Shown: piece by piece, positions 5,423 to 64,000 of the stretch | Numbering within the stretch: the first letter of the stretch is position 1 | Layout: each line of letters opens with the position of its first letter | Assembly (NCBI RefSeq): GCF_037969875.1 | Contig: NZ_CP150218.1 | Location: 6,820,001 to 6,884,000 of the forward strand | Length of the DNA: 64,000 nucleotides | Direction of reading: 5' to 3' | From: Paenibacillus sp. FSL R7-0337 | Lineage (GTDB): Bacteria; Bacillota; Bacilli; Paenibacillales; Paenibacillaceae | Notes under the pieces: model-generated | Databases searched by the model: none | Told to the model about the DNA's origin: nothing | Seen by the model: the letters and a program-made list of their open reading frames with translations, nothing else | Position numbers and translations under genes: made by a program

Positions 5423-5498
5423 GGGGCCATAGCTCAGCTGGGAGAGCGCATCGCTGGCAGCGATGAGGTCAGGGGTTCGATCCCCCTTGGCTCCACCA
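5423..5498 (+). tRNA. tRNA-Ala (anticodon GGC)
   Basis: Complete cloverleaf with acceptor arms GGGGCCA and TGGCTCC, the anticodon loop CTGGCAG (anticodon GGC at its centre), the T loop GGTTCGATCC region and an encoded CCA end at 5496-5498. Its 3' half from 5450 onward is duplicated at 36524-36572 at the other end of the island. Confidence 0.97.
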
Positions 5499-5582
5499 AT
5501 TTCATACGGACTCTTAGCTCAGTTGGTAGAGCAGTAGACTCTTAATCTATTTGTCCAGGGTTCGAGCCCCTGAGAGTCCATC
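5450..5582 (+). repeat. Left boundary direct repeat (attL-like)
   Basis: Starts in the anticodon stem of tRNA-Ala and runs through tRNA-Lys to two bases past its end. It matches 36524-36656 base for base except three positions, all in the tRNA-Ala part. Homology stops abruptly at both ends, as expected of an integration boundary. Confidence 0.85.
5508..5580 (+). tRNA. tRNA-Lys (anticodon CTT), copy 1
   Basis: 73-base tRNA without encoded CCA; the anticodon loop CTCTTAA gives anticodon CTT. It follows tRNA-Ala after nine bases. Identical copies lie at 36582-36654 and 63844-63916. Confidence 0.97.
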
Positions 5583-5704: not shown

Positions 5705-5779
5705 ATATTAAATTGGCTGCTTAACACTGTTTCAATTGGAGAGGAAGAATAATACATTTCTCAATGAGGGTGCAGGTAC

Positions 5780-6278
5780 GTGGCTAGTATTGAAAAATGT
5801 GGTGAAAATTCATTTAGGCTTGTTGTCGAAGCGGGATATGATGCACGTGGCAAAAGAATTAAACGGTGAAAATCCAAAAAAGCTAATGGCATTAGAGAAT
5901 CTGAAAAAGAACTAGTCAAGTTCCAAACTGAAGTTGAAACTGGTGAATATATAGTTCCTGAAAAGATGACCTTTTCTTCATTCCTTGAAGAGTGGAGAGA
6001 AAAGTATGGAAACAAACATCTTGAGTTGAAAACCATGGAGACTTATAATCACATGTTGAAAAATCATATCGTTCCCTATTTTGATAAGCAGCGCATTTCT
6101 GATAATAAACCCATTCAGAATTAAATTTCTTGATGACTTATCACACGATGGTGCCCGAAAAAATAGTAAACCAGGAGGACTTCATCCGAAAGAGCTGTCG
6201 AATGGAGAATTTAATCCAGTAGCTGCCATAAAAAGACCTAAAGTGAAGGAACGAGAAGTAGAAGTGGAGCTGGAATAG
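5780..6278 (+). pseudogene. Tyrosine recombinase (phage-type integrase), truncated and frameshifted
   Basis: Reading from GTG 5780 gives a start typical of ICE/phage integrases (MASIEKCGENSFRLVVEAGY). This is the AP2-like arm-binding domain. It ends in a stop after KRIKR near 5866 and continues in another frame through a core-binding segment with FSSFLEEWREKYG and TYNHMLKNHIVPYF. A further break near 6120 follows, then a piece ending NPVAAIKRPKVKEREVEVE. The catalytic domain with its Arg, His and Tyr residues is absent: the frame ends at 6278, directly against the inverted repeat of an IS3 element at 6279. The gene is dead. Its place beside the tRNA repeat identifies the family that integrated the island. 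Confidence 0.85.
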
Positions 6279-6981
6279 AAAGTGGACACCCGTTAACGAA
6301 CGGAGCGATAATAGGGGCAATGGAGGTGTGTTCACGTTGGAGAACAACAACAACGCTACAACGTAGAAGGGTGAAATTTATTCAAGAACAGACCAAGAGC
6401 ATGGGTGACATCGCGGAAGAGCTCGATATTCCGAAACGTACACTGCATCAATGGTTGGGGCAATATCGGAAGCTAAAGAATGAACCGGCAGCGAGTAAGG
6501 ATTAGGTACGGGAACTCGAAGCAGAGCTCCAAGAGATGCGCCGCAAGCTTCAGGAGAAAGACATCTAACTTGCCGATACCAAGGAATTAAGATTCCAGTT
6601 CATGAAGAAGCATCGCTCCGAGTTTCGCTTGGAGAGGATGTGCATCATTCAACAGTTGCCCAGGAGAGAATCCAATATCATTTTGACGACCACCAAAAGC
6701 GGTGTGGGAGTCCGAAAATCACCCGTCTGCTGCATCAAGAAGGCTATACGGTCACGGAACGTACAGTGAGTGTGTACATGAGGGAAATGAAGCTGCGCTC
6801 AGTGGTGTCTAAGCCCTGCCGTTTACAAACCACCGACAGGAATCAAGGCTGTTTATTTGTAAATCATGCGTTGGGTATTCGGGCGAGCATCCTTTTGCAG
6901 CAGCGGTCACCATGCCACTCGATTATCATCGCTATGCATACGACGGTTCCGAAGAAGCAGGAGAATAAGGAAGCGTATTGA
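6279..6981 (+). mobile_element. IS3-family element remnant, copy 1
   Basis: The left inverted repeat AAAGTGGACAC is at 6279-6289 and matches the ends of copy 2 at 14076-15157. OrfA-like sequence follows (FIQEQTKSMGDIAEELDI, helix-turn-helix, near 6377-6430) but is broken near its start and by a TAG at 6503-6505. OrfB-like sequence is recognisable from about 6600 (FMKKHRSEFRLERMC) and in the frame 6640-6981 (CGSPKITRLLHQEGYTVTER). The DDE catalytic core is gone and no right inverted repeat was found. It inserted into the integrase and removed its 3' end. Confidence 0.8.
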
Positions 6982-8139: not shown

Positions 8140-10560
8140 ATGAACTGCTTGACTAGTTATGAGAATTTCGAGAAAGCATTTATCAATGATGTTGATCTAT
8201 TGCTACAATATAAAGTGTTATTCAGACATTGGAATGGAACTAAATATGATGAAAGTGTATTGGCCAACCCTGTAATGAAGCCCAAAAGAAGCAATGGTGA
8301 AATTGTTTGGGAAGAAACCAAATTAACAATGAAAGATTTAATAGAGTGGAATGCTGGATATTTTAACAAAAGAAAAAAAGAGGCTGAATTATATGATGAA
8401 AAAAAGGAAATAGGCTATTATACAGACTTGATAGATGCGGATAATAGTATCATCGATATATTTTTCCTGGGCGAACAACCATTACTTGATATTCAATATT
8501 ATAAACTACAGGCAAGGGCATCACAAAAGATCAAAAATACTGATTGCCCGAATTTTCACCTTATCTTTGATGAGGTAGGAACCGGTAAAACTGTATCTGC
8601 AATTTATTGTATCCGTGATGTTGTTTCTGAAAAAAAGAATGAGGCAAAGATTTTGGTTATTTGTCCGAATAATAAAAAGAGTGAATGGGAAAAGGACATT
8701 CAGCGACAGCTCGGATTGTATGCTCATACAGTAGAGAATGGAGATAAAGGATCCTACTATAATGAAACATTAAAACAGATGTACTTTAAATGCAACGAGC
8801 CAGCTATCTTTATTAAAGATCAAAAGGTTAACGAACTTAAGACGGAGTTAAACTCTTGGAATAGTGGTGATATCTGGGATTTAATAATTATAGATGAAGG
8901 GCATCTATGCTTTGATAATTATAATGATTTGAAAGCAGAAAAGGTAATATTGCTTACTGCAACACCAATTGTCGTTAACAGTCGAACAAATGCTGGAACA
9001 TTAGATATTAGCAAGGTGCGTGATTTAACGGCATATAGAGATAAACTGTCTAGAATCGTAGATAATAAACAGGATGCTTCTTTAAGTAATTTATTTGGTG
9101 ATAGTGACATTTTCACACAACTATTTAGAGAGGATCTAGAAATAATTCCGAAAAAGAGAAATATTATTTTTTTAGAATGTGAACGTTGGGATCAAAGAGA
9201 GGAACATCTTAATATTCTAGCCGAGGTAAAAGGTGGTATGACGAGGTTAATTTACGAACAAGATGATGAATTTCTACTAGAGGGAATCTACAGAAGGTTT
9301 AGAAAAGATATTGAAGACTATGGATACTTAATAGAAGATAAAGCACCATCTATTGATAATTATAAGTATAGAAAATTGGTGGAGTATATTCAAACTAATT
9401 ATAGTTCTTACATTATATTTTTCAATACAATATGGTCTGCTGATAATACATTTAAAGGACTAGTCGGGGATGGAAATCTAGATAGGGATATTATTATTGC
9501 TAAAAAGTTTGGTGGTGAAAAGTGTGATATTTATCCCAAGGATAATGCTGTTACACCTGATAATGTATTCGATTACTTACAAGGGCAAATAGAATTAGGA
9601 AAGAGAGTGTTATTTATTACCACTGGAGCAACCGGCGGGACGGGACTAAATTTAGGGGGATTTCATGGGGTAATCAACTATGAACTCCCGTTCACAAGCA
9701 TTGAACTTGAACAACGTTTTGGTAGAGTTGATAGAATGGATAATAGTGACTCGCAAGAGAAAGAGATGGTATTTATCCTAAATCACGATGCAAACCCAAT
9801 GTTAAGATATAGTACTTTAAAAATCAATAAAACTTGTGAGTATATGCCTATAAGAAATACAATTTTATTCCATTCTGAATTTATAAAGAAAAATATCGAG
9901 TCATTAAAAAATGAATTGTCGAAGTGCAAGCTTGAGGCTAATAGTAACTTCATGAAAGAATTGATTGAAATGCGTAGTAAGGTTGGTGACAACGATAAGA
10001 AACTAATAGAACGTTTGGAGGGCTACATCATACAGAAAAAGAGTATCGAACAATTTGATGTAGATATAGCGGAGTTAGCTGAAGAAACAAAAGCTTATAT
10101 TGATTTCATAGCGAAAAAAGCAAAGTTTGAGTGCGCTATTCAAGTTTATTCTCAAATAAGGTTACTACATTTGCTGGAACCTCAAATTCTTAATTGGTGT
10201 AACTTACTTGGAAAAAAATCAACAATAGACATCGAGAGTGCTTCATATATGGTAGCTGATGATGAAGAAAAAGAATATGACGAGTATTATGAAGAACAAA
10301 ATACTATACGAAGCGAAAATATTTTGATTAAAGAGGATGAAAAAAATGAGGGGAAACATAGATATGGTTTTGATTTTAAGTATGAAGCTTCTCTTAAGAA
10401 ATATGGAGAATTAGAAAATCTGTTGGAAGATCTGGTGGATACTTCAGATAGTCAGACTGCATCAGGACTTTTTTACATAAAGGATAATAATTACATTAAA
10501 CAGACTGTAGAGGAATATCGTAATGATTTTAGTGGGTTACGAGGGATGAATAATGGATAA
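8140..10560 (+). CDS. SF2/SNF2-like helicase, first gene of a helicase-GHKL ATPase pair
   Basis: An 806-residue nucleic-acid-dependent ATPase. Visible motifs: Walker A DEVGTGKT at residues 144-151, motif II as DEGH at 252-255, motif III TAT at 273-275. The second RecA-like lobe has GGTGLNLGG and EQRFGRVDRMD (motifs V and VI, about 505-540). The order and the QRFGRVDR motif resemble SNF2/HepA-like proteins more than DEAD-box helicases. The C-terminal third is helical and charged with no known domain. AGAGAGGAG precedes ATG 8140. The stop overlaps the start of the GHKL ATPase gene, so the two are translated together. No nuclease or methylase domain was seen. Very AT-rich, unlike the core genome, which points to transfer. 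A defence role is inferred from the island context. Confidence 0.85.
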   Translation: MNCLTSYENFEKAFINDVDLLLQYKVLFRHWNGTKYDESVLANPVMKPKRSNGEIVWEETKLTMKDLIEWNAGYFNKRKKEAELYDEKKEIGYYTDLIDADNSIIDIFFLGEQPLLDIQYYKLQARASQKIKNTDCPNFHLIFDEVGTGKTVSAIYCIRDVVSEKKNEAKILVICPNNKKSEWEKDIQRQLGLYAHTVENGDKGSYYNETLKQMYFKCNEPAIFIKDQKVNELKTELNSWNSGDIWDLIIIDEGHLCFDNYNDLKAEKVILLTATPIVVNSRTNAGTLDISKVRDLTAYRDKLSRIVDNKQDASLSNLFGDSDIFTQLFREDLEIIPKKRNIIFLECERWDQREEHLNILAEVKGGMTRLIYEQDDEFLLEGIYRRFRKDIEDYGYLIEDKAPSIDNYKYRKLVEYIQTNYSSYIIFFNTIWSADNTFKGLVGDGNLDRDIIIAKKFGGEKCDIYPKDNAVTPDNVFDYLQGQIELGKRVLFITTGATGGTGLNLGGFHGVINYELPFTSIELEQRFGRVDRMDNSDSQEKEMVFILNHDANPMLRYSTLKINKTCEYMPIRNTILFHSEFIKKNIESLKNELSKCKLEANSNFMKELIEMRSKVGDNDKKLIERLEGYIIQKKSIEQFDVDIAELAEETKAYIDFIAKKAKFECAIQVYSQIRLLHLLEPQILNWCNLLGKKSTIDIESASYMVADDEEKEYDEYYEEQNTIRSENILIKEDEKNEGKHRYGFDFKYEASLKKYGELENLLEDLVDTSDSQTASGLFYIKDNNYIKQTVEEYRNDFSGLRGMNNG

Positions 10561-13500
10561 TATACTCTTAATTGATGAAATCGTAAAATACTATATGAAC
10601 CCTAAAACATATCCCAATAAAAATAAATATGAGGTTAAAAAGGGGATTAAAGAGCTCGATAGATTCCTCTTAGATAAGAACTGTGAAGAAAATGGATTCT
10701 TTAGAGCTTTTTTCGAAAGGTATACATCAGATAATGTGGAGCATTCTATTAATTCTACTATTCGGAAAACAAGAGCGGATGAGCAAGGGCTAAGTGCAAC
10801 GAAAGGTTATAAAGAAATATACTTTAACGAGATCATTCAGAATGCAAATGATAACACTACTGGAGAATCTATACGTATAATACTGTCCAATAGTAATAAT
10901 AATTATGAGATGTCTTTTTTCTATAAAGATTCTGGATTTAAGACAGAAAATATTATAGGTTTTTTTAATACAGAGATACATACCAAAAGATCCGATCTAT
11001 CCACAACCGGTAAGCATGGTGTAGGAATTAAATCATTATTTTATTTTGTTGATCACATGACAATGGAAAGTAACGTAAAGATTGAATTTAAAGTTAAAAC
11101 AATCATCGAAGATGGTATTGAGAAAATTGAAAGGGTAAGTTCTAATTTTTCGAAAAATGAACAATGGGATGGGGAAACAAGTCGGTTTACAATTCGATTT
11201 CCCCAAAAAGAAAGCTATGGTGAATATAACGTTAAGAAGCTTATAGATTTCATTAATTCAATGTTAGATAACAGAACCTTTATACAAGATGAAACGTTTG
11301 AGCAATATTTCTTTGACTTAAACCAGAAAACATTGATTTTTGACATAAGAGGCTTACTGTTTACAGATAAAAACAAAGATAAAATCAAAGGCATAAAGAA
11401 AATACTTTTTTGTAAGAAAGATGATGATACCGAGTCAGAGTTGTTCTCGATATCTTGTGACGAAAGTAATTTAATTGAAGATGACGGTAATAGAGCATGT
11501 AGAGCAACCTTGAAGTGTAATGATGAAGAAAGGTTATCCTACCTGATGTTTACCAGCGAAGGAGAAGGAGAGCAGCAGAATTTTTCGGTTGCTTTTCCGC
11601 TAAAACCTAAACGCAGCAAACGAAGATATTATGAAACATTTTATATTTCTGAAGCTGATGACGAAGGAATAGATATATTAGTTAACAGCAAGTATTCAAA
11701 TGTAGCTAGAACTAAATTAACGGATGAAGATAATAAAATTAAAGCAATTAAGGAAGAAATAGAGGGCGAACTTATAAAGATCTATAAGTTTATGGTAAGT
11801 GAAAAGTGTGCTGAGTCGGATATAGGTGAAGATATCAGTAAATTGTTTCATAGTTTAATGATCGAAGATAATTCAAATATTAACTTATTTTATGGAAATG
11901 AAATTAGTAACCGATTTTTACCAAAGTATATAAATAGTGATGTGCAACTGAAACAAGATCTGAAAGATAGATATCTTGTATATCAAAGAATAGATAAAGA
12001 GGATTTTGAAAAGCAGTTTATTGGGCAGAAATTCACTAAAGAAAATATGAAGAAATTTTTTGTGAAAAGTTTTGTTGCGAATGATTGTATTGAATATGAT
12101 GAGAAGCTATTCATTGAAGAATTAAAGGCAATATATAATCAGGCATTTCAAGGTAATCAACAATATGGAGATATTTATAAAATAAGAACTGTACTAAACA
12201 TAGCTGGTAGTGTTCGTGAACTAATATACTATCGAATCACAGGTAGGTTCCCCAATAATAAAGAACAGCAGCTTATACTTAGAGATGTACAGGTTGACGC
12301 GTGGCATGAAAAGTTGTGGGTGGGTAATATTGAATTAATAGATATTTCTTACTCGATGATTGGCAGGTATAAATTACACAATCATATTGATACAGCAGGT
12401 AAAATTACAGGCGCGTCTTTTTATGAATATCTATTTAATCAAAGTTATAATGCAAATCAAAACGAGCAGACTAATGACAAACAATATCCAACGATGGGAG
12501 GGAAACAAGAGGAGATATTTGATAAACAATATAACGAATTAAAAACACGATTATTAGACCTATTGGTCAATAAAGAACAATCAGGTGAGGTTAAACTACC
12601 AAATTATCCTCTAGTTAAGAAGACATACAAAGAGGGTACAGTTGTGTTTTATGGCTCAGATCATCATAATGCATACGATATTTACTTTGATAACGATAAA
12701 TTCGCAATATATGATTACAGGGATATGAATACTGATCAATTTGGTGATAAGCTTTCAGTGAATTTTGTGAAGAAAATAGTAGATGAGGATGAATTAAAAA
12801 GTCATATTATTTGTATTAATGGAAAAATAATGCTTGCATCAAGTGAATATCCGTTATACATGAATCCCACGTATCAATTTTGGAGAAGTGAACCTTATAT
12901 TAATGGTATATGGTTTGAATGTAAACTCATAAATATTGAATTTTTAAGGCGAATTTATGCACATACTTTTGAGAGTTTTAAATTTTACCTGGAGGAGTTT
13001 CTTGAGAAAATCGTTGTTGTGAGTAAAGTGAAAGGAATTACACTCGATACAGCGAAATCTGAAATACCACTATTTGGACTTAATATAAATGATATGCCAG
13101 AAATCTTTAAGTTTTTCTACGTTAATGGGAGATATGTTAAATTAACAACAGACAAGTATAAGGTTAAGTTTAACATCGATTTATTAGGAGACATCATGAA
13201 TAATTTATGTCCAAGTGATTATATTAAACATGTCTTTAGATTAACAAAGAAGAAGATCTGTGTTATGCAAACCAATAAAATTGAAAACAGGGATGAAGTA
13301 ATGTATTGGCATAACGGTAGCTTTAAAATATGGGGGAATAACGACTGGCATGAAATAGGAAAGGGAAATAGAAATTTTGAAAATGAGATCATTATTATTC
13401 ATAATGAAAAGATGGATTATAAAAAGGCAATTAACAAGGTTTTAAAAAATATATTTGGAAATGGTGATATGGTTAATAAGTGTGATGTTTTTATTTCGGA

Positions 13501-13945
13501 AGGTCATAGACTAGCGATTCAAGGAGAAGAATATAATAAATTATCGAGCTGTGATATAGATATAAACCCAAGGTATCGCCGAATAAGTTGTGAATATGAT
13601 GCTAACAGACTTTCATGTGATACGCTTAGGAAAATTATTACATCAAGAGGAAATAATGATAATAAATGCTGTTGTTGTGGAAGAAAATTGACTTATTCAA
13701 AGCTAATTATTACAAATAATTTTAATGAAAAAACAAAGAAAGAATATCCTCAAGTGTTTGAAGTTGTATGCGAAGATTGTGAAAAAGTATTGAATAAAAG
13801 TCTGAAAAATACAGAAATTATTAAAGAAGAGAATTCTTACTATGTAACATATAAATGTGAAGTGAATAATTCACATCAAATAAAAGAAGTCATTTATAAA
13901 ACTAAGTTATATGATGGGATATTGGCATTATGTAAAGCAAAGTGA
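10553..13945 (+). CDS. Large GHKL (Hsp90/sacsin-like) ATPase with C-terminal zinc ribbon
   Basis: A 1130-residue protein. The N-terminal ATP-binding fold of the gyrase/Hsp90/histidine kinase/MutL type is clear: N box NEIIQNAND (Glu93, Asn97, Asp100), G1 box DSGF (126-129) and G2 box TGKHGVGIKS (152-161). The long middle part has no domain I recognise. Near residues 1035-1085 there is a zinc-ribbon-like set of cysteines (CCCCGRKL, then CEDCEK). It starts inside the last codons of the helicase gene (ATG 10553). GHKL ATPases of the MORC/sacsin type are known beside helicases and restriction-like genes in bacteria, and ATP-driven clamp formation is plausible. No nuclease motif is evident. The function of this pair is not known to me. 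Confidence 0.8.
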   Translation: MDNILLIDEIVKYYMNPKTYPNKNKYEVKKGIKELDRFLLDKNCEENGFFRAFFERYTSDNVEHSINSTIRKTRADEQGLSATKGYKEIYFNEIIQNANDNTTGESIRIILSNSNNNYEMSFFYKDSGFKTENIIGFFNTEIHTKRSDLSTTGKHGVGIKSLFYFVDHMTMESNVKIEFKVKTIIEDGIEKIERVSSNFSKNEQWDGETSRFTIRFPQKESYGEYNVKKLIDFINSMLDNRTFIQDETFEQYFFDLNQKTLIFDIRGLLFTDKNKDKIKGIKKILFCKKDDDTESELFSISCDESNLIEDDGNRACRATLKCNDEERLSYLMFTSEGEGEQQNFSVAFPLKPKRSKRRYYETFYISEADDEGIDILVNSKYSNVARTKLTDEDNKIKAIKEEIEGELIKIYKFMVSEKCAESDIGEDISKLFHSLMIEDNSNINLFYGNEISNRFLPKYINSDVQLKQDLKDRYLVYQRIDKEDFEKQFIGQKFTKENMKKFFVKSFVANDCIEYDEKLFIEELKAIYNQAFQGNQQYGDIYKIRTVLNIAGSVRELIYYRITGRFPNNKEQQLILRDVQVDAWHEKLWVGNIELIDISYSMIGRYKLHNHIDTAGKITGASFYEYLFNQSYNANQNEQTNDKQYPTMGGKQEEIFDKQYNELKTRLLDLLVNKEQSGEVKLPNYPLVKKTYKEGTVVFYGSDHHNAYDIYFDNDKFAIYDYRDMNTDQFGDKLSVNFVKKIVDEDELKSHIICINGKIMLASSEYPLYMNPTYQFWRSEPYINGIWFECKLINIEFLRRIYAHTFESFKFYLEEFLEKIVVVSKVKGITLDTAKSEIPLFGLNINDMPEIFKFFYVNGRYVKLTTDKYKVKFNIDLLGDIMNNLCPSDYIKHVFRLTKKKICVMQTNKIENRDEVMYWHNGSFKIWGNNDWHEIGKGNRNFENEIIIIHNEKMDYKKAINKVLKNIFGNGDMVNKCDVFISEGHRLAIQGEEYNKLSSCDIDINPRYRRISCEYDANRLSCDTLRKIITSRGNNDNKCCCCGRKLTYSKLIITNNFNEKTKKEYPQVFEVVCEDCEKVLNKSLKNTEIIKEENSYYVTYKCEVNNSHQIKEVIYKTKLYDGILALCKAK

Positions 13946-14095: not shown

Positions 14096-14783
14096 GAATT
14101 ATGCCGGTTTTCTCTTTTTAAACTGCGATGCAAACTGAAACATAACCCAACGCACCGTGGATTCGCTTGCGGTTATAAAAAAATCAATGTACTGGAAGAT
14201 CTCATGCTTCGTTTTGAACTTCGTGCAATAGACGAACTCTTTCTTTAGGATTCTATGAAAGGATTCAATGCAGGCATTGTCATAGCAATTCCCCTTGCGG
14301 CTCATACTGGCCTTCATGTGGTACTTCTCTAGACGCTTACGGTACTCTGCAGAGGCGTACTGAGATCCCCGATCCGAGTGATGGGTGAGTCCCTTCTTGG
14401 TCCGTTTCGCGTTGTAGGCGTTGTCCAAGGCACCGAGAACCAGATCCTTAGTTATTGGGTCCTTCTTGTCTCCAACAGACACTCTCTTTCGTACAGAGAT
14501 CGAGCACACTGGCTAAGTACAGCTTGCATGTATTTCCCCACCGGCGGCTCGCTAACCGTGTAGCCTTCTTTCTATAGCAACTTGGTGATTTTGGGGCTGC
14601 CGTAACGTTTCTGGTTATCCTTGAAATGATAGGTGATTCGCTGAAGTAACTTTACCTTACGCTCTGCTTGGGGGCTGATTTCCTTCTCACGCCATTTGCA
14701 AAACCCGCTCCGGGAAATGTTGAGCATGCTGCACATCTTCTCCATTCGAAACTCGGAGCGATGGGTTTCGATGAACTGAAATC
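14096..14783 (-). pseudogene. IS3 transposase OrfB, broken
   Basis: Leftward pieces of the DDE transposase. The N-terminal part (MEKMCSMLNISRSGF, then GSPKITKLL) ends in a TAG near 14575. A deletion then joins into YLASVLDLCT near 14505, and the DDE part HHSDRGSQYAS...CYDNACIESFHRILKKE is open in 14099-14509. The C-terminus is out of frame relative to the family. Several disruptions make it inactive. Confidence 0.8.
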
Positions 14784-15053
14784 TCAGTTCTTTGGTTTGC
14801 TGAAGTTGTGCACCGCTTTTTTTACGATGGCAAGCTCCTCTTCGACATCTGCAATGCGTTGTGCTCTTGTCCGTAAGTCCTTTTCTTGTTCTGCCAATCG
14901 CCGCTCAAGTTCGCGAACCTTTTTCGCACTATTTAAAGGTTCGTTACTGAACTCCCGATACTTCGCCAGCCAGTTGTGCAGCACCCCAAGGGAGATCTCC
15001 AGCTTCTCACCAATCTCCACCACCGACTTTGTCTGTTCCTGAATGTACTTCAC
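14784..15053 (-). pseudogene. IS3 transposase OrfA-like helix-turn-helix protein
   Basis: The frame encodes the N-terminal helix-turn-helix (YIQEQTKSVVEIGEKLEI) followed by a leucine-zipper-like coil (VRELERRLAEQEKDL), as in IS3 OrfA. In the same frame, about 50 bases upstream, a TAA interrupts the expected N-terminus (GE-stop-RQRYNETFKKE), where a glutamine codon would be expected. The normal start is therefore cut off and only an internal start could be used. Confidence 0.7.
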
Positions 15054-15263: not shown

Positions 15264-17987
15264 ATGGAAATTCAATTAAATGACCCAGATGTTAGAATAA
15301 AAAATTGGTTGGATTCTCAGGGATATCAAATAATTCAAACGGAAGATAGCAAAAGTAAGTGGATTTTTGGGCAAAATTTATTAGGTGAACAACTGTTTAT
15401 TAATATTATTACACGACAAAGTGAACAGACTGAAATCAATATTATTGATACCGATGAGAAATTAGAATCAATCAAAAAGTTGAAAGAAAAGTATAATTGT
15501 GAAGCATATTTTGCAGTGCTTGCACCAAAATCCGGTAAAAAATCTTGTTACATTTTTAATTTACAAGATTTATTGGAATTTCCATGGAACTTGGATAGAG
15601 AAAGAGTTAAGGCCTTAAATTTCAGTTCTAAATATGAACAGCAAATCGAAATATATGAAAGATCCGAAAATATACTTATTCATAACGTAGAAGATCTAGA
15701 GCAGAAGATTGGGAATGCTGCTTCTCTTAGAGCAGAAGCGGTCATGATAAATCTTAACGAATATCAAACAATCTTCGATCAAAACATCACACACGAACGA
15801 TGCAAACAAGTTCTTGTTCAAATTGAAGCACCTTTAAAACCGATCTTGCAAGAATTTAAAGATAGCTTGAACGATCCTAGTCTGTACCTTCATTCCTATG
15901 GTGTTACCTTAACAACAACTTATCATGACGCTTTGAATCCTAAATATGCTGAACAAAGAAAAGAAAGCAATATTGGTAGAAAGTATTTTGTTCAGATTAT
16001 GAAGAAAATTGGAGATTCTGAGGTGAATGCACTTACGCTTGAGTTTAACGGAATGGAGAAGCAAGTTCTGCTTTCCGTTGAAACCAATTTTTATCCAATT
16101 TGGGAAGCCGTTCGACTGAATAGAATTAATGGTATTGTCAGTGAGCTAAATCCCGATGTAGATGTACTTGTTTCAAGTCAGTCCAGAGACTCAACAATCA
16201 GAGAGTATGTTGAACGACAAGAGCTAGAGGACTTTATTAAGTCTTGTATTAAGCCTAGGAAAAGACCTTGGTTATACTTTGCTAAATGTTTTCCGCTGGA
16301 AGGAGAATGGTCTGTAGAAAAACTGTTTGATGAATTGAAAGCAGCGTTGAAATACTTGGAGCCTATTCGTAATTATTTGCAGGAAGAGAAAGAGAAGAGC
16401 GTCCAGGCAGCACGTATTCTAACACTTCTGCAGCTAGAAGAAGCAATGCAGGACATAACTTTGTTCCAAAGAATGTATCAACTGCAATACGGTTCTGTGG
16501 AGAAAAAAACGGGTTTCTGTAGACAGCAATTTTCTTTGAAGGATCAAGAACAGCTAATTGTTAAGGGTTATGTACTTTATTACCAATTCTATGAGAAGCA
16601 ATCGCCTTACCAAGTTTTAGCTGTCCAATTGGACGGACATAATCACATATACACAAACGTTCGTAACCTACTCGGAACAGGAACAAAGGAATGGTGGATT
16701 CGTAAGCTATTCGCCACGCAGTACCTGAATAACGCTGAGTTGCTTGAAAAGGGGATGGATTTATTAAAGCAGCATGGGCTGGAGGTTAAAGAGAGTGAAT
16801 ATCTTGCAGGCACGTATGACAATGAATCTGGAGTCTTTATAGAGGCAGCAGATATTGTCAAAAAAAAGCTGATTACTGCTGCGCTCTTATTTGCTCATGC
16901 TAGTGAAAAGCTACAGCTACCATCGGTAGATGATTTGGAACTTATGATAGATGATGACATTGAATTAGGGGGAGAATTAGAGGAGGAAGAAGAATATACT
17001 GCTAATTTCCAACTCACTTCCATTCTAGAGTTAATATCTAATAGTAGCTTTACTTTCGCTAAAGAGATTATTCGAGATTTCCATTTGAATTTGACGGCTC
17101 TAGACGATAAGCATTTTGTAATCTTAAGCGGTATATCTGGTACAGGGAAAACACAATTGGCAAGGCTGTATGCTAATGCTGTATACGGGATGGAGTATGA
17201 GGTGGACAATCCGTACATGTCTGTTATTCCAGTACGGCCTGACTGGACAGATTCAAGTTCCTTATTCGGTTATTACAGCTCCTTCGAGAATCGGTATGTC
17301 ATTCCTGAGTTTCTAAGAATGGTATTGAAAGCTCATCAAGAACGTGAGAAACCACATTTTGTCGTGTTAGATGAAATGAATTTGGCAAGAGTGGAGTATT
17401 ATCTTAGTGATTATTTGAGCGGTGTGGAGTCTAGAAAGGAAATCCCTTTACACAACCGGGTTGATTTTATGGAAATTCCAAAGACTGTTGCAATTCCGCC
17501 GAACCTGTATGTGATTGGGACTGTAAATGTAGATGAGACGACTCATTCGATTTCTGATAAAGTTTTGGATCGGGCATTTGTAATGACGCTAAGTGAAGTG
17601 GATTTTGACACGTTCTGGAATAGATCTGCTGAGAATGTAAGACTTAAACTTCAGATGGAGTTTGAGTTTTTGAAACAAATACATGGTATTCTAAGGCCCT
17701 ATTACCTTCATTTTGGTTATCGTTCTATGAATGAAATGCTCCAAAAGTTATCACATAATAAAGATTTGGAAGCTAATATTCAGATGGATACAACGGAAGC
17801 TCTTGAAAAGGTTATTATTGAAAAAGTGCTTCCTAAGATTCGGGGCGATGACTCCATTTCAGAGATGTTAACTAAACTTCATCAGGTTTTTGCAGCAGAA
17901 TTCGGATCGGATTCTGCAACCCTAGAGATCATAGAGCGGATGGAAAAGGAGATCGCGCGATATGGAGCCGCTCAGTTTTGGAGATAG
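15264..17987 (+). CDS. McrB-like AAA+ GTPase/ATPase of a type IV restriction-like pair
   Basis: A 907-residue protein. The C-terminal AAA+ module is of the McrB type: Walker A GISGTGKT near residues 623-630, an insert with DWTDSSSLFGYY, Walker B VVLDEMNLARVEYYLSDYL near 697-716, and sensor GTVNVDETTHSISDKVLDRA near 753-772. In E. coli McrB this motor hydrolyses GTP and drives cleavage by McrC. The first 130 residues form a separate alpha/beta domain with no family I recognise, and residues 130-600 are an unusually long middle region that may read modified DNA or another phage feature. A short acidic run (GGELEEEEEY) lies just before the AAA+ domain. The stop region overlaps the next gene by 26 bases. 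Confidence 0.9.
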   Translation: MEIQLNDPDVRIKNWLDSQGYQIIQTEDSKSKWIFGQNLLGEQLFINIITRQSEQTEINIIDTDEKLESIKKLKEKYNCEAYFAVLAPKSGKKSCYIFNLQDLLEFPWNLDRERVKALNFSSKYEQQIEIYERSENILIHNVEDLEQKIGNAASLRAEAVMINLNEYQTIFDQNITHERCKQVLVQIEAPLKPILQEFKDSLNDPSLYLHSYGVTLTTTYHDALNPKYAEQRKESNIGRKYFVQIMKKIGDSEVNALTLEFNGMEKQVLLSVETNFYPIWEAVRLNRINGIVSELNPDVDVLVSSQSRDSTIREYVERQELEDFIKSCIKPRKRPWLYFAKCFPLEGEWSVEKLFDELKAALKYLEPIRNYLQEEKEKSVQAARILTLLQLEEAMQDITLFQRMYQLQYGSVEKKTGFCRQQFSLKDQEQLIVKGYVLYYQFYEKQSPYQVLAVQLDGHNHIYTNVRNLLGTGTKEWWIRKLFATQYLNNAELLEKGMDLLKQHGLEVKESEYLAGTYDNESGVFIEAADIVKKKLITAALLFAHASEKLQLPSVDDLELMIDDDIELGGELEEEEEYTANFQLTSILELISNSSFTFAKEIIRDFHLNLTALDDKHFVILSGISGTGKTQLARLYANAVYGMEYEVDNPYMSVIPVRPDWTDSSSLFGYYSSFENRYVIPEFLRMVLKAHQEREKPHFVVLDEMNLARVEYYLSDYLSGVESRKEIPLHNRVDFMEIPKTVAIPPNLYVIGTVNVDETTHSISDKVLDRAFVMTLSEVDFDTFWNRSAENVRLKLQMEFEFLKQIHGILRPYYLHFGYRSMNEMLQKLSHNKDLEANIQMDTTEALEKVIIEKVLPKIRGDDSISEMLTKLHQVFAAEFGSDSATLEIIERMEKEIARYGAAQFWR

Positions 17988-19443
17988 TTTTTTAGTTCGT
18001 TCTAGAGGTAGTGAATGGATCCCGCTTGAAAGAGCTTATTTCACCGAAGCGACAGAATATGAATGGTTCTGGGAGCACACTGACTTTACAATCTTGCTTA
18101 TGCAGGGTGTTCCTCTAACCTATAGGAAAGTAGATGGTGGGGTTACAGGTCAATTTATAACTCCATTTCAAAGTGGGCAGTTGACTTTTACAGTAGAACA
18201 AGATGCATATGGGAGCTATATATACCCAGATGATCGAAAAATGACTGCTGAGCAGTATGACATAATGCTACTTGAAATTTTGGATGAAGCAGCGGTGTGT
18301 TTTGATCATGCAGGGCTTACGATACCAATTAGTACAGAGAACCGAGCAAAGGATATCTCATGGGCACAATGGAGCTATATCGATCATGGGTTTATAGATC
18401 TTGCTTCCAATATTCGACGTTTCCTACAACATCCATTAAAACGACTGTCTGAGAAGGACGTTTTTTTGAAGCGGGAACAAATTAAGATCGTTACGAATCG
18501 AACAACGCAGTGGCTAGAAAGACATTATGCTCAAGATCCCTTAAGTATAATTCCTAGTAACGTGTTAACAGATGTTCGATTGGATACTTACAATATATAT
18601 GAAAATAGGGTCATGAAAAGATACTTGTTAGAACTTCAAAGTCTTCTGGTTACATATAAACATTGCAATTTAAGCGATGTTTCAGAGAAGGCGGCAAAGT
18701 ACTGTGATCTTGTGAGATATTGGTTGGGACAGGGGGTTTTCCAAGAGATTACTTCACATAAGGGGCCAGTACATGTCTCAGTAATTTTCCGTAAGCATCC
18801 TGTTTATCATTTGTGTTACAAGTGGTTTGATCGTTTATATCAGCATGCAAATGAGCGACTTGGATTCGAATATCCCTTTCCACTGAAGGATACATTTGCT
18901 TTGTACGAAATATGGTGCTTTATGCAAGTCATGAAATTGTTAAGAAAGAAAGATCTGATTAAAAATACGGCTAATCTTTATAAATCTAGTCTTGATCGCT
19001 TTTTTTTATCACTTGCCAAGCATAAAGAAAGTCACGTATCGCTTGCTAATAGCCATCATCTATATTACCAAAGAGTCTTTCAGTATAATTCCAAACTTTT
19101 TTATTCGTTCACCCAACGAATGGAACCGGATATTACATTGGAGAGCAATGAAGGAATTCTCGTATTTGATCCTAAGTACCGTGTTCCGACTAATTTGAGC
19201 ACTGCCTTAGGGGAAATGCATAAATATAGAGATGGTATTCTAGTTAGAGATAAAGAAATTCCTGCTGTAGAGGATGTTTTTATTCTTACGCCCTCAAAAG
19301 GTCAGGAAGAACTTCGTTATTTTCAGGAATGGTATCATATTCGTTACCGTATGGGTGCAATTGAGATGGTTCCTGGACAGCCAAACACTCGGGCTATAGA
19401 GAAGGTGATAGATGGTTTTATTAAAAAAGATTCTGTTAATTGA
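17962..19443 (+). CDS. McrC-like nuclease subunit (DUF2357 plus PD-(D/E)XK)
   Basis: A 493-residue partner of the McrB-like motor. The N-terminal and middle parts match the DUF2357 style (YNIYENRVMKRYLLEL near residue 210). The C-terminal part is a PD-(D/E)XK nuclease: MEPDITL near 388, then VFDPKYRV near 402, then EMHKYRDGI near 417, giving the D...D-x-K core. AAGGAG is at 17947-17952 before ATG 17962, which lies inside the end of the upstream gene, so the two are translationally coupled. Transcription ends at a strong hairpin just after the stop. Confidence 0.9.
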   Translation: MEPLSFGDSFLVRSRGSEWIPLERAYFTEATEYEWFWEHTDFTILLMQGVPLTYRKVDGGVTGQFITPFQSGQLTFTVEQDAYGSYIYPDDRKMTAEQYDIMLLEILDEAAVCFDHAGLTIPISTENRAKDISWAQWSYIDHGFIDLASNIRRFLQHPLKRLSEKDVFLKREQIKIVTNRTTQWLERHYAQDPLSIIPSNVLTDVRLDTYNIYENRVMKRYLLELQSLLVTYKHCNLSDVSEKAAKYCDLVRYWLGQGVFQEITSHKGPVHVSVIFRKHPVYHLCYKWFDRLYQHANERLGFEYPFPLKDTFALYEIWCFMQVMKLLRKKDLIKNTANLYKSSLDRFFLSLAKHKESHVSLANSHHLYYQRVFQYNSKLFYSFTQRMEPDITLESNEGILVFDPKYRVPTNLSTALGEMHKYRDGILVRDKEIPAVEDVFILTPSKGQEELRYFQEWYHIRYRMGAIEMVPGQPNTRAIEKVIDGFIKKDSVN

Positions 19444-19509: not shown

Positions 19510-21042
19510 CTATATCTCCTTCAAAAACTTCTCAATATCCACTGCACCCAAATCCTCCGGTTTTATCCGTGCGTAATGTTTGAAGGCTTCGTCGAATGGA
19601 GCCAAACTCTCCACAAGAGTTCCGGCAGTGCTTACGGCTCTATGGCTGCCCCGACGGGAAAGCTGTTTCCATGCTTCAGGAAACAATGAGCCTGCAGTAT
19701 AAGCCTTGTTCACATTGTAGACCCACTGATATACAGAAGCGAATGTGCGGTCGGATGCGGCCTTATATGGCTCTGTGTCGAGGGTATAAGGCTTTGTTGC
19801 AAATAAACTTGAGGGGTCTACGTTCTGCCTCTTTTGCATAAGTACTACCAGAATCAGGTTACGCTTCAATTGTAGTAACTCTTCTTCCTCTCCGGGATCT
19901 ACAATTTGTGATGAATCCATGGCAGTCGTGCCGAAATAAACAGAAGCCTCTCGAAGCTTGTCCTTCACAAATGCTTTAAGAGTGAGCTCTGCAGTAAAAA
20001 TAATAGTTAGGTATAAGGCTGCTCGCCATTCACGGGCCTCCTCATAATCCAACATTTCAACTTCTATATCCTCGTAGTTTAACCCAGGTTTCGATTTCTC
20101 GTCAGCAAAATTAAAGGGGGGATTTCCGGGCTCTTTCACCAAGTTATCGAATAAAAGAATTCTGAGTTCTGGACTTTTCACCAATGTAAAAAGCGCGGTC
20201 AATTTCACAATAGCTTCACCTTTTCGTCTTTGACTAGGAAGATCCAACAGACCGGCAGCCTCGATTTTGGCGCTTGTATAATTCACATAAGCTGTATGTA
20301 GTTCACTTTCATAATTCCGCAGATCTCCAGCAATCTCTTGATGAAACGACACGTCCTTCAGGATACTTTGGAACATTCTATATTGCTTAAGTATTCTCGT
20401 TCTGCGGTTATTTACTAGTATGTCATTGGGATGAGGATGCAGAAACTGATCCTGCTTCAGATATTTTTTGAAAAAAAGGAACGCAGCACCAGATTTGCTT
20501 CCATGTTCACTCCATTCTTGTCTGATCTTGTTCATGTCAAAGCCATCCGTATTCTCCGGGTTGTCAAAGGTGAGTGGGTTCCGGCCGAAAAGGCGCTCAA
20601 CGATAAGAGTCTGTTCATCCGCAGATAAGGAAGATGTTGAAACTCCTCCTTTTTCCGCAGCGATCTCATCCTTCAGATACAGAATGGAATTCTCGAAAGT
20701 CTGCAGCCAGGCCTGAGGGTCAAGATACATTAGTTTTTCCAGAATTTCACCGAGGGAACGGCCAAACAGCGTGTGATCATGATATTGATTCATCAGCTCT
20801 ATTTGTCGGGGGGAGAGATGGCGTTGTTCTTCATAGATTGCTTGAAGTGAATAGTACTTAACCAACTTCTCCGTATGCTCAACATCCAGCCCCAAATGCA
20901 GGCAAGTATCGTGAAGGGGCTGCCCCGTATCCATGGCCTTAATGAGACTGTCCAAACTCCATTCCCGATGAATCTCCGAGAAATCAAAGTCGAAATCGCA
21001 CTCCTTATACAAAAATCGCTTCAGTGTTTTACTCTTGTTCAT
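19510..21042 (-). CDS. Hypothetical 510-residue protein
   Basis: I do not recognise this protein. It is soluble-looking, mostly helical and charged, with no signal peptide or membrane segment; it begins MNKSKTLKRFLYKECDFDFD. AAGGAG precedes ATG 21042 at good spacing. Its GC content seems higher than that of the helicase pair but lower than the core genome. It converges on the McrC-like gene and diverges from the XRE module, so it is probably its own transcription unit. A role in defence is possible from location only. Confidence 0.8.
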   Translation of the reverse strand: MNKSKTLKRFLYKECDFDFDFSEIHREWSLDSLIKAMDTGQPLHDTCLHLGLDVEHTEKLVKYYSLQAIYEEQRHLSPRQIELMNQYHDHTLFGRSLGEILEKLMYLDPQAWLQTFENSILYLKDEIAAEKGGVSTSSLSADEQTLIVERLFGRNPLTFDNPENTDGFDMNKIRQEWSEHGSKSGAAFLFFKKYLKQDQFLHPHPNDILVNNRRTRILKQYRMFQSILKDVSFHQEIAGDLRNYESELHTAYVNYTSAKIEAAGLLDLPSQRRKGEAIVKLTALFTLVKSPELRILLFDNLVKEPGNPPFNFADEKSKPGLNYEDIEVEMLDYEEAREWRAALYLTIIFTAELTLKAFVKDKLREASVYFGTTAMDSSQIVDPGEEEELLQLKRNLILVVLMQKRQNVDPSSLFATKPYTLDTEPYKAASDRTFASVYQWVYNVNKAYTAGSLFPEAWKQLSRRGSHRAVSTAGTLVESLAPFDEAFKHYARIKPEDLGAVDIEKFLKEI

Positions 21043-25231: not shown

Positions 25232-26533
25232 ATGAAAGGAATCCCTAATCCTAAGTTTTGGTCATTATGGAACCAGCACAAATATAAAGAAGCACTCCAA
25301 GAGCCGCTTTATCCCTTGAAGACGCAACAAACGCAAAGCCCTATGCAGTCATTTTTATTTGGCAATACGGAAGAATTGAAGGCAAGCTTGGGTATCGGAA
25401 TCATAACCACAGGTGAATTTTTGTACGATTACCTCCGATTAGACCCCTTGGTGATGAAGGGGATCGACTTCTCCAGAGCGGAAGACTTATCCTCCTTGTT
25501 TACATTCTCCGAGTTTGCGGACTCGGTGAATATACAAATAAATACGGGAGATATTGCACAGATGCAGGGCTATGTAGCAGAGCGAATGATTGCTTCAGAG
25601 CTACAGGCAAAGGGATATGACGTTGAATTCCCAGAAACGTCTAACCAAGCAGGTTATGATATGCTGGTAGACGGAGCCCCTTTTCAGGTCAAAAATCTGT
25701 TAAGTCCAGCAGGAGTAAAAGAACATCTTGAGAAGTATCCGGATATTCCTGTTTATGTGAATGAGGAGCTGGCAGATTATTTTGAGAACCATCCTATGGT
25801 GTATGCAACGCATGTTCAGCATGCCCATGTGCTGCAAGCAACTAAAGATTCATTAATGGCCGCAAAGGATCTGACTGATTTTGAGATCCCGTATATCTCA
25901 CTGCTGGTATCGACTATTTCTCAAACCAAAAAACTCATTTTTGATGAGGCTTCTTTGGGTCAAGCTGTATTCAACGTGTTCAGCGATACATCCTCAAAAG
26001 TTGTGATGGGAACGATTGGCCAGCATACCGTATCAGCCGCATGTCTGTTTTTGTTCGGTCCTGCGGGTGGATTGATTGGCAGCGGAGTAGGTGCAATCCT
26101 TGGAGCTAGTCAAGGATGGAGATTATCAATGAAGCTCAAATCAACGCTGGCTAAGAAGGAGGAAGCAGCGTTAATTCATGCGATTGAAGCATTAAATGAA
26201 CAGGTATGCACGCAGGTAGACAGAAAAATAAATTATAAACACACAAGACTAGGACAAATCCTGCAAGGATTGGGTCATAGGAATTCCGAAGCCGGTCATG
26301 TAATTGCAGACGAGATGAAGAAGAGAGTTAATGAGGGAATCATATACGCGCAGAATAAGAAGCTGGAGCTGCGGATGCTTGTGGAAGATGTGAGAATAGG
26401 TGAGCAGCCTGTCCTGAAGGCTATGGAACCTCTGTTGGTGAAGATAGCACAGACGGGTGTTCACCCTCCACACTATCAGCAAGATTTAAGAACGGTTACA
26501 GATTTAATGAAGGGATACCTTAAGAAGCAATGA
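25232..26533 (+). CDS. PD-(D/E)XK nuclease-like protein with a glycine-rich membrane segment
   Basis: A 433-residue protein, GAGGTG before ATG 25232. Residues about 112-156 have the order of a restriction-endonuclease-like core: Glu117 in YVAERMIASEL, Asp143 in GYDMLVDG, then the Q-x-K variant of the last motif as Gln152 and Lys154 (FQVKN). This is the usual Mrr/HJR-like spacing. Around residues 268-295 is a hydrophobic glycine-rich stretch (FLFGPAGGLIGSGVGAILG) that could insert into membrane or form a glycine zipper. The C-terminal third is helical. A nuclease tied to membrane and co-transcribed with dynamin-like GTPases suggests an effector; catalytic activity is inferred from motif spacing only. 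Confidence 0.7.
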   Translation: MKGIPNPKFWSLWNQHKYKEALQEPLYPLKTQQTQSPMQSFLFGNTEELKASLGIGIITTGEFLYDYLRLDPLVMKGIDFSRAEDLSSLFTFSEFADSVNIQINTGDIAQMQGYVAERMIASELQAKGYDVEFPETSNQAGYDMLVDGAPFQVKNLLSPAGVKEHLEKYPDIPVYVNEELADYFENHPMVYATHVQHAHVLQATKDSLMAAKDLTDFEIPYISLLVSTISQTKKLIFDEASLGQAVFNVFSDTSSKVVMGTIGQHTVSAACLFLFGPAGGLIGSGVGAILGASQGWRLSMKLKSTLAKKEEAALIHAIEALNEQVCTQVDRKINYKHTRLGQILQGLGHRNSEAGHVIADEMKKRVNEGIIYAQNKKLELRMLVEDVRIGEQPVLKAMEPLLVKIAQTGVHPPHYQQDLRTVTDLMKGYLKKQ

Positions 26534-28902: not shown

Positions 28903-28913
28903 GAGGAATGTTT

Positions 28914-31268: not shown

Positions 31269-31287
31269 AAGGGGGAGATCACAATCC

Positions 31288-36523: not shown

Positions 36524-36572
36524 ATCGCTGTCAGCGATGAGGTCAGGGGTTAAATCCCCCTTGGCTCCACCA
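36524..36572 (+). pseudogene. tRNA-Ala 3' fragment
   Basis: Starts in the anticodon stem and runs to the encoded CCA. It has no 5' half. One substitution falls in the anticodon loop (GGC to GTC) and two in the T loop (GGTTCGATCC to GGTTAAATCC). It cannot form a tRNA. Confidence 0.9.
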
Positions 36573-36581
36573 ATTTCATAC

Positions 36582-36654
36582 GGACTCTTAGCTCAGTTGG
36601 TAGAGCAGTAGACTCTTAATCTATTTGTCCAGGGTTCGAGCCCCTGAGAGTCCA
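36582..36654 (+). tRNA. tRNA-Lys (anticodon CTT), copy 2
   Basis: Identical to copy 1 over all 73 bases. No obvious promoter lies directly upstream, since the tRNA-Ala 5' half and its promoter are missing here, so expression is uncertain. Confidence 0.93.
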
Positions 36655-36661
36655 TCACATG

Positions 36662-63771: not shown

Positions 63772-63843
63772 ATGAAAGTACTTTTGAGCGGACGCAGTCA
63801 GCTTAGAGATTATCGTCTAGAGAATCATACATAGACACCATAC

Positions 63844-63916
63844 GGACTCTTAGCTCAGTTGGTAGAGCAGTAGACTCTTAATCTATTTGTCCAGGGTTCG
63901 AGCCCCTGAGAGTCCA
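63844..63916 (+). tRNA. tRNA-Lys (anticodon CTT), copy 3
   Basis: Identical to copies 1 and 2 over 73 bases. It stands alone with its own promoter and is not preceded by tRNA-Ala. Confidence 0.96.
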
Positions 63917-63925
63917 TCCCTTAAG

Positions 63926-63949
63926 AAACGGCAGAAATGCCGTTTTTTT
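63926..63949 (+). terminator. Terminator of tRNA-Lys copy 3
   Basis: Stem AAACGGCA / TGCCGTTT, GAAA loop, followed by a T run. Confidence 0.85.
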
Positions 63950-64000
63950 GCTGTTTTGAGAGAGATGTGCGGTAAACCGAATACACTGGGTCGTGTGTAG

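What the first reader, a model, noticed from the sequence alone, without database searches (positions are those of the whole stretch)
8140..13945. Helicase plus giant GHKL ATPase with zinc ribbon: candidate two-gene defence system
Sequence shows a DEGH-type SF2/SNF2-like helicase overlapping a 1130-residue protein with complete N, G1 and G2 boxes of the Hsp90/sacsin/MORC fold and a four-cysteine C-terminal ribbon. No methylase or nuclease is present, so the pair differs from DISARM, BREX or type I systems as I know them. Known: GHKL ATPases of the MORC type have been noted beside SNF2-type helicases in bacterial restriction-like operons. Defence is inferred from the island.
Basis: partly seen in the sequence, partly recalled or inferred. 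Interest (0 to 1): 0.72.

Follow-up and report, generated by a model that had tools for sequence, protein, structure and literature searches.

The report
SNF2–Hsp90-like two-gene defence candidate
A mobile 31-kb defence island in a soil-type Bacillota genome carries a tightly linked pair of genes, a DNA-tracking motor and a giant Hsp90/MORC-like ATPase with a zinc ribbon, which travel together in distant bacteria, match no named defence system, and contain no recognisable nuclease.

Summary
At 8140-10560 lies an SNF2-class helicase (DEGH Walker B, all core motifs); overlapping it by 8 nt, 10553-13945 encodes a 1130-aa GHKL/S5 ATPase with intact N, G1 and G2 boxes and a CxxC...CxxC ribbon, all invariant in 14 aligned homologues. 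The helicase lies immediately upstream in 13 of 14 other loci (gaps -56 to +21 nt); no third gene is shared by more than 3 loci. The two distance matrices correlate at r=0.975. In 201 relatives the helicase family occurs only where a GHKL gene lies beside it. PADLOC and NCBIfam give only domain-level similarity (DpdE/DrmD/HmaA; Tiamat ATPase), so no named system fits. The pair has 30-33% GC against 53% in the core and sits in a 31-kb tRNA-Lys island that a sister species lacks, with McrBC-like and LeoA-like neighbours; Wadjet or AbiH elsewhere. I conclude: an uncharacterised two-gene defence module, conceptually in the MORC/paraMORC-plus-SF2-helicase class, most likely a DNA motor that loads an ATP-gated GHKL clamp on invading DNA. 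Defence is inferred, untested; the mechanism is a hypothesis. A Lachnospiraceae variant adds Hsp70s and a PIN nuclease.

The parts
8140..10560 (+). SNF2/RapA-class SF2 helicase (dsDNA translocase), 806 aa; helicase core about 117-560, helical C-terminal region
   Evidence: Pfam SNF2-rel_dom, ResIII, Helicase_C above cut-off; conserved motifs in 13 homologues; AlphaFold model closest to ISWI, ALC1, INO80, CSB, RapA
10553..13945 (+). Giant GHKL (Hsp90/sacsin/MORC-fold) ATPase, 1130 aa: GHKL plus S5/transducer about 86-420, middle region, C-terminal zinc ribbon
   Evidence: N, G1 and G2 boxes invariant in 14 aligned sequences; sacsin ATP-binding model 42.3 bits; Foldseek to TopoVI-B, sacsin, gyrase, Hsp90, MORC3
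13667..13780 (+). Four-cysteine ribbon (C1039xxC1042 ... C1073xxC1076) of the GHKL protein
   Evidence: All four Cys invariant in 14 homologues
5450..5582 (+). Left direct repeat: 3' part of tRNA-Ala plus tRNA-Lys; putative attachment site of the island
   Evidence: 98% identical to 36524-36656; tRNAs called by ARAGORN
36524..36656 (+). Right direct repeat with a second tRNA-Lys; island end
   Evidence: a sister genome joins the two flanks without the 31 kb
5720..6250 (+). Degenerate tyrosine-integrase reading frames next to tRNA-Lys
   Evidence: Three-frame translation (ASIEKCGENSFRLVVEAGYDARGKRIKR ... FSSFLEEWREKYGNKHLELKTMETYNHMLKNHIVPYFDKQ) with frameshifts and stops; identified by eye, no profile search run
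6350..6981 (+). Degenerate IS3-family transposase fragments, left
   Evidence: HTH_21 hit at 6640-6981; inverted repeat 6567-6648 / 14726-14807
14099..15053 (-). Degenerate IS3-family transposase fragments separating the pair from the McrBC-like operon
   Evidence: ORF translations and inverted repeat
15264..19443 (+). McrB-like AAA+ (15264-17987) and McrC-like DUF2357/PD-(D/E)XK (17962-19443): separate defence neighbour, not part of the pair
   Evidence: PADLOC PDC-M26A 175 bits; PDDEXK_7 and DUF2357 above cut-off; no homologue near the pair in the other loci

Best explanation
An uncharacterised two-gene anti-invader module carried by a mobile tRNA-Lys defence island. Proposed mechanism: the SNF2-class motor binds and tracks along invading double-stranded DNA (inferred from fold). 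It recruits and loads the giant GHKL ATPase, which closes as an ATP-gated dimer clamp around the DNA, as MutL, topoisomerase VI-B and MORC do (inferred from fold and invariant ATPase motifs). The C-terminal zinc ribbon holds DNA or the motor (inferred). Since neither protein has a recognisable nuclease, the block is most likely by trapping, looping or compacting the DNA so that phage replication or transcription stalls, or by handing the DNA to a host or neighbouring nuclease. Shown here: both proteins are intact with all ATPase motifs, are co-inherited as an adjacent pair, form a two-gene core, and lie in mobile, defence-rich, sporadically distributed DNA. Inferred: defence, physical interaction, clamp action.
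For: Adjacency in 13 of 14 other loci with gaps -56 to +21 nt, and no third gene shared by more than 3 loci. Distance matrices of the two proteins correlate r=0.975, above all 20,000 permutations. Helicase family present in only 4 of 201 relatives, each time with an adjacent GHKL gene. Sporadic: 1 of 398 sampled phylum genomes. Island flanked by 133-bp tRNA-Lys repeats and absent from a 93%-identical sister locus; GC 0.30-0.33 vs 0.53. Defence neighbours: McrBC-like, LeoA/LeoBC-like GTPases, two Wadjet-type operons in L015, AbiH in L008. Fold. Precedent for GHKL plus SF2 helicase in restriction operons: PMC2292703.
Against: No functional test. The permutation test ignores shared species history, though the pair is distributed sporadically. 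In three Lachnospiraceae loci the pair ends a Hsp70-rich operon, which suits a chaperone role as well. AlphaFold models are of moderate confidence (mean pLDDT 67.7 and 65.7, shallow alignments), so a hidden nuclease in the low-confidence middle (about 440-560 and 670-790) cannot be excluded. Some loci (L018, L021) border ordinary metabolic genes.
Confidence: 0.5

Rival explanations
1. Chaperone-type sensor with effector supplied elsewhere: the GHKL protein works like Hsp90/sacsin on a phage protein or nucleoprotein complex and uses the SNF2 motor to strip proteins from DNA; damage to the invader or cell comes from accessory factors.
For: Best sequence model is the sacsin ATP-binding domain; Foldseek hits sacsin SR1 and Hsp90; Lachnospiraceae operons add several Hsp70 genes, one with an inserted PIN domain, directly upstream; RapA/SNF2 motors remove proteins from DNA (established knowledge).
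Against: Hsp70 genes occur in only 3 of 15 loci and not in the window; topoisomerase VI-B and MORC folds match comparably.
Confidence: 0.25
2. The pair is the sensor/motor half of a larger restriction array whose nuclease is the neighbouring McrBC-like operon (15264-19443).
For: McrBC-like genes lie 1.3 kb downstream on the same strand; the distant version in L041 also sits in a run with McrB-, McrC- and YprA-like genes.
Against: Transposase debris separates them in the window; no McrBC homologue near the pair in the other 14 loci; the McrBC proteins of the two loci are not specifically related; McrBC-like systems are common in defence islands.
Confidence: 0.1
3. Abortive-infection or plasmid-targeting module: activation of the pair on foreign DNA or a phage product stops the host cell rather than clearing the invader.
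For: No nuclease for direct restriction was found; many island modules act this way (established knowledge); AbiH neighbour in L008.
Against: No toxin-like domain recognised in either protein.
Confidence: 0.15
4. Not defence: a mobile-element or DNA-repair/maintenance function (for instance handling element DNA).
For: The genes lie on an integrated element and one plasmid; GHKL proteins and SNF2 motors also serve repair.
Against: Repeated defence neighbourhoods; no conserved linkage to integrases or conjugation genes across the loci examined; no homologue found in viral contigs or phage records.
Confidence: 0.12

Closest known systems
Prokaryotic MORC / paraMORC operons (Iyer, Abhiman and Aravind 2008, PMC2292703)
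   Same: GHKL+S5 ATPase encoded beside an SF2 helicase, including SWI2/SNF2 types, in mobile restriction-like loci
   Different: Those operons often add DNA methylases and nucleases (HNH, EcoRII-like, Vsr, RE-fold). Here a two-gene core, a large C-terminal part with a Cys4 ribbon, no MORC S5 motif GhXhhpXXRhl, no paraMORC3 RE-fold or paraMORC4 TIR domain detected
Tiamat (TmtA)
   Same: GHKL/sacsin-like ATPase domain at the N-terminus; best PADLOC hit of the GHKL protein
   Different: Match covers about 80 of 1486 model positions (26 bits); Tiamat is a single-gene system (own knowledge), this is an obligate-looking pair
Hma (helicase-methylase-ATPase)
   Same: SNF2-type helicase HmaA is among the best helicase hits
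   Different: Hit limited to the helicase core (47.7 bits); no methylase; GHKL protein has no Hma hit
DISARM DrmD, Dpd DpdE, BREX BrxHII, ARMADA ArmA helicases
   Same: RapA/SNF2-class helicase of defence operons
   Different: Far below equivalog cut-offs (DpdE 71.7 vs 500; DrmD 50.4 vs 610); none of the partner genes (methylase, YprA, PLD, PglZ) present
Shedu type with GHKL domain (VcSduA, PMC12137116)
   Same: GHKL ATPase used in anti-phage defence
   Different: Shedu carries a C-terminal DUF4263 PD-(D/E)XK nuclease; no such Pfam or PADLOC hit in the GHKL protein

Membership tests
MORC | GHKL+S5 ATPase with intact nucleotide motifs | tested here: met
MORC | S5 motif GhXhhpXXRhl | tested here: not met
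   By inspection of the alignment: region around invariant R386 reads GIDILVNSKYSNVARTKL; spacing and residues do not fit
paraMORC3 / paraMORC4 | C-terminal RE-fold nuclease (E-D-ExK) or TIR domain | tested here: not met
   No Pfam or PADLOC nuclease/TIR hit; the last part of the protein holds a Cys4 ribbon
paraMORC2 / paraMORC1 / paraMORC5 | ExxxH in S5 (paraMORC2), family-specific extensions (1, 5) | tested here: inconclusive
   No conserved His in the S5 region or HxH in the C-terminus among columns conserved in at least 12 of 14; the original families were not available as profiles
Tiamat | Full-length TmtA similarity | tested here: not met
   Only residues 92-174 align, 26.2 bits
Hma | Helicase plus methylase plus its ATPase | tested here: not met
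   HmaA core only; no methylase hit among the island proteins scanned
DISARM / Dpd / BREX / ARMADA | Signature helicase at family cut-off plus partner genes | tested here: not met
   Scores far below cut-offs; partners absent near the pair in the window
Shedu | DUF4263 nuclease | tested here: not met
   No hit
Any defence system | Anti-phage activity when cloned | not testable with these tools
   Needs a phage challenge
Two-gene system | Both genes co-inherited as a unit | tested here: met

The most novel reading that the evidence does not exclude
A nuclease-free prokaryotic immune module in which a chromatin-remodeller-like motor and an Hsp90/MORC-like clamp silence or compact invading DNA, a bacterial counterpart of MORC/SMCHD1-type chromatin silencing; in Lachnospiraceae the same pair is the core of a nine-gene operon with several Hsp70s and a PIN RNase, a chaperone-based immune array.
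Probability: 0.2. Interest if true: 0.85.

Novelty: new variant of a known kind. Interest (0 to 1): 0.56.

Why it matters
If it defends, it would be a defence module built from two ATPases with no recognisable nuclease, methylase or toxin, so its mode of action would have to be physical (clamping, compaction, stalling) or by recruitment. That would make testable the old proposal that prokaryotic MORC-like GHKL ATPases with SNF2 helicases are the ancestors of eukaryotic chromatin silencers. The pair is compact, intact and in a Bacillota genome, hence easy to test in B. subtilis.

Tried and rejected
Match to a named system: PADLOC, NCBIfam, Pfam and PHROGs gave only domain-level hits. Solved structures by sequence: none meaningful for the GHKL protein or profile, only RapA for the helicase profile. 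Phage or viral origin: none in phage records or viral contigs. McrBC as a partner: rejected as obligatory. AddB-like nuclease plus UvrD upstream in the Lysinibacillus plasmid: not shared with any other locus, a 286-nt gap apart, so treated as a separate neighbour. Helicase C-terminus as a degenerate REase, as in RapA/BrxHII (PMC12839542): the model there is helical, not pursued further. L022, the one locus without the helicase: its GHKL gene is split and tblastn finds no helicase remnant, read as decay. Ten paper searches found no report of this pair; only open-licence papers are held. The family-level search with the L041 GHKL protein rang nowhere, so it shows nothing.

Full report
OBSERVATION. 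The two ORFs are real and intact: 8140-10560 (806 aa) and 10553-13945 (1130 aa), overlapping by 8 nt, the second preceded by a plausible ribosome site. The first is an SNF2-class SF2 helicase (Pfam SNF2-rel_dom, ResIII, Helicase_C above cut-off; motifs conserved). The second has no Pfam hit but just under-cut-off similarity to the sacsin ATP-binding domain, invariant N, G1 and G2 boxes and a Cys4 ribbon across 14 aligned proteins, the others only 20-39% identical to it. Its AlphaFold model (mean pLDDT 67.7) matches topoisomerase VI-B, sacsin SR1, gyrase, Hsp90, SMCHD1 and MORC3. The helicase model (mean pLDDT 65.7) matches ISWI, ALC1, INO80, CSB and RapA.

TWO-GENE UNIT. A genome-collection scan, the relatives search and the plasmid search gave 14 further distinct loci, all Bacillota. 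In 13 of them the same helicase lies directly upstream of the GHKL gene, on the same strand, at -56 to +21 nt (in one, L018, the helicase is cut by the contig end). The exception, L022, has a split GHKL gene and no helicase remnant. Clustering all neighbours showed no third family in more than 3 loci. Helicase and GHKL distances correlate at r=0.975 (13 loci; 0 of 20,000 permutations reach it; the permutation ignores phylogeny). Reciprocally, among 201 relatives the helicase family occurs in 4 genomes: the three with the GHKL protein, and a fourth whose very divergent helicase overlaps a divergent 1075-aa GHKL gene.

MOBILE DEFENCE ISLAND. Two copies of a 133-bp tRNA-Ala(3')/tRNA-Lys segment lie 31 kb apart, 98% identical. 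A sister genome, 93% identical upstream, joins the flanks with nothing between. Degraded integrase frames follow the left tRNA. The pair has GC 0.30-0.33 against 0.53 in the flanking genome. Island neighbours are a McrB/McrC-like pair (PADLOC PDC-M26A; DUF2357+PDDEXK_7) and three LeoA/LeoBC-like genes, one with a Pfam dynamin hit. Elsewhere the pair sits between two Wadjet-type operons (L015) or beside AbiH (L008). It is rare: 1 of 398 genomes sampled across the phylum, 3 of 201 relatives.

WHAT IT IS NOT. No named system fits. Helicase scores are far below the equivalog cut-offs for DpdE and DrmD; the GHKL protein matches Tiamat only over the ATPase domain; Hma, DISARM, BREX, Dpd, ARMADA and Shedu partners are missing (PMC12458937; PMC12137116). 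Conceptually it belongs with MORC/paraMORC plus SF2-helicase loci (PMC2292703), but it lacks the MORC motif and the nuclease or TIR extensions of paraMORC3 and 4, and no methylase accompanies it. It works like that class; membership in a particular paraMORC family is not shown.

MECHANISM. Both active sites are conserved, so two coupled ATP-driven steps are likely. SNF2 motors translocate on double-stranded DNA; GHKL+S5 proteins close as ATP-dependent dimers around DNA or clients (established knowledge). The simplest joint model is motor-assisted loading of a GHKL clamp on foreign DNA, the ribbon providing a DNA or partner contact. Without a nuclease the outcome would be trapping or silencing, or hand-over to another nuclease. 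The chaperone model is the main rival, because Lachnospiraceae homologues end a nine-gene run that begins with an Hsp70 carrying an inserted PIN domain and includes further Hsp70s and uncharacterised proteins, with an N-terminally extended Cys-rich helicase.

LIMITS. Defence is inferred from context. Models are of moderate confidence. The genome scan uses short peptide patterns and will have missed divergent members. The paper library holds open-licence papers only, and PADLOC-DB here is of 2023.

Noticed in passing
L019, L020, L021 with upstream L044, L045: Lachnospiraceae operon of about nine co-directional genes: Hsp70 with inserted PIN domain, 265 aa, Hsp70, coiled-coil-like 570-600 aa, Hsp70, unknown 480 aa, Hsp70, SNF2 helicase with Cys-rich N-terminal extension, GHKL. 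Possibly an undescribed chaperone-based conflict system.
   Followed up: partly
L041:4183-15673: In another species of the genus: YprA-like DUF1998 helicase, McrB-like, McrC-like, SNF2 helicase and 1075-aa GHKL in one run; a distant version of the pair inside a larger restriction-like array.
   Followed up: partly
window 26563-33708: Three consecutive large LeoA/LeoBC-like genes (dynamin family hit on the first, others by PADLOC) inside the island, preceded by a PDC-M72B-like gene at 25232-26533.
   Followed up: no
window 19510-21042 (-): 510-aa protein in the island without any Pfam, NCBIfam or PADLOC hit.
   Followed up: no
window 63786-63957: Third tRNA-Lys with the same terminator-like tail as the island repeats; sister genomes carry tRNA-Lys copies in the same region, suggesting a hotspot flanked by several tRNA-Lys genes.
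   Followed up: partly
L005:3198-9118: Lysinibacillus plasmid: AddB-like PD-(D/E)XK nuclease and UvrD helicase-nuclease directly upstream of the pair.
   Followed up: no
L015:1-22917: The pair lies between two Wadjet-type operons, one of JetABCD type II downstream and one SMC-hinge/JetD-like upstream.
   Followed up: no
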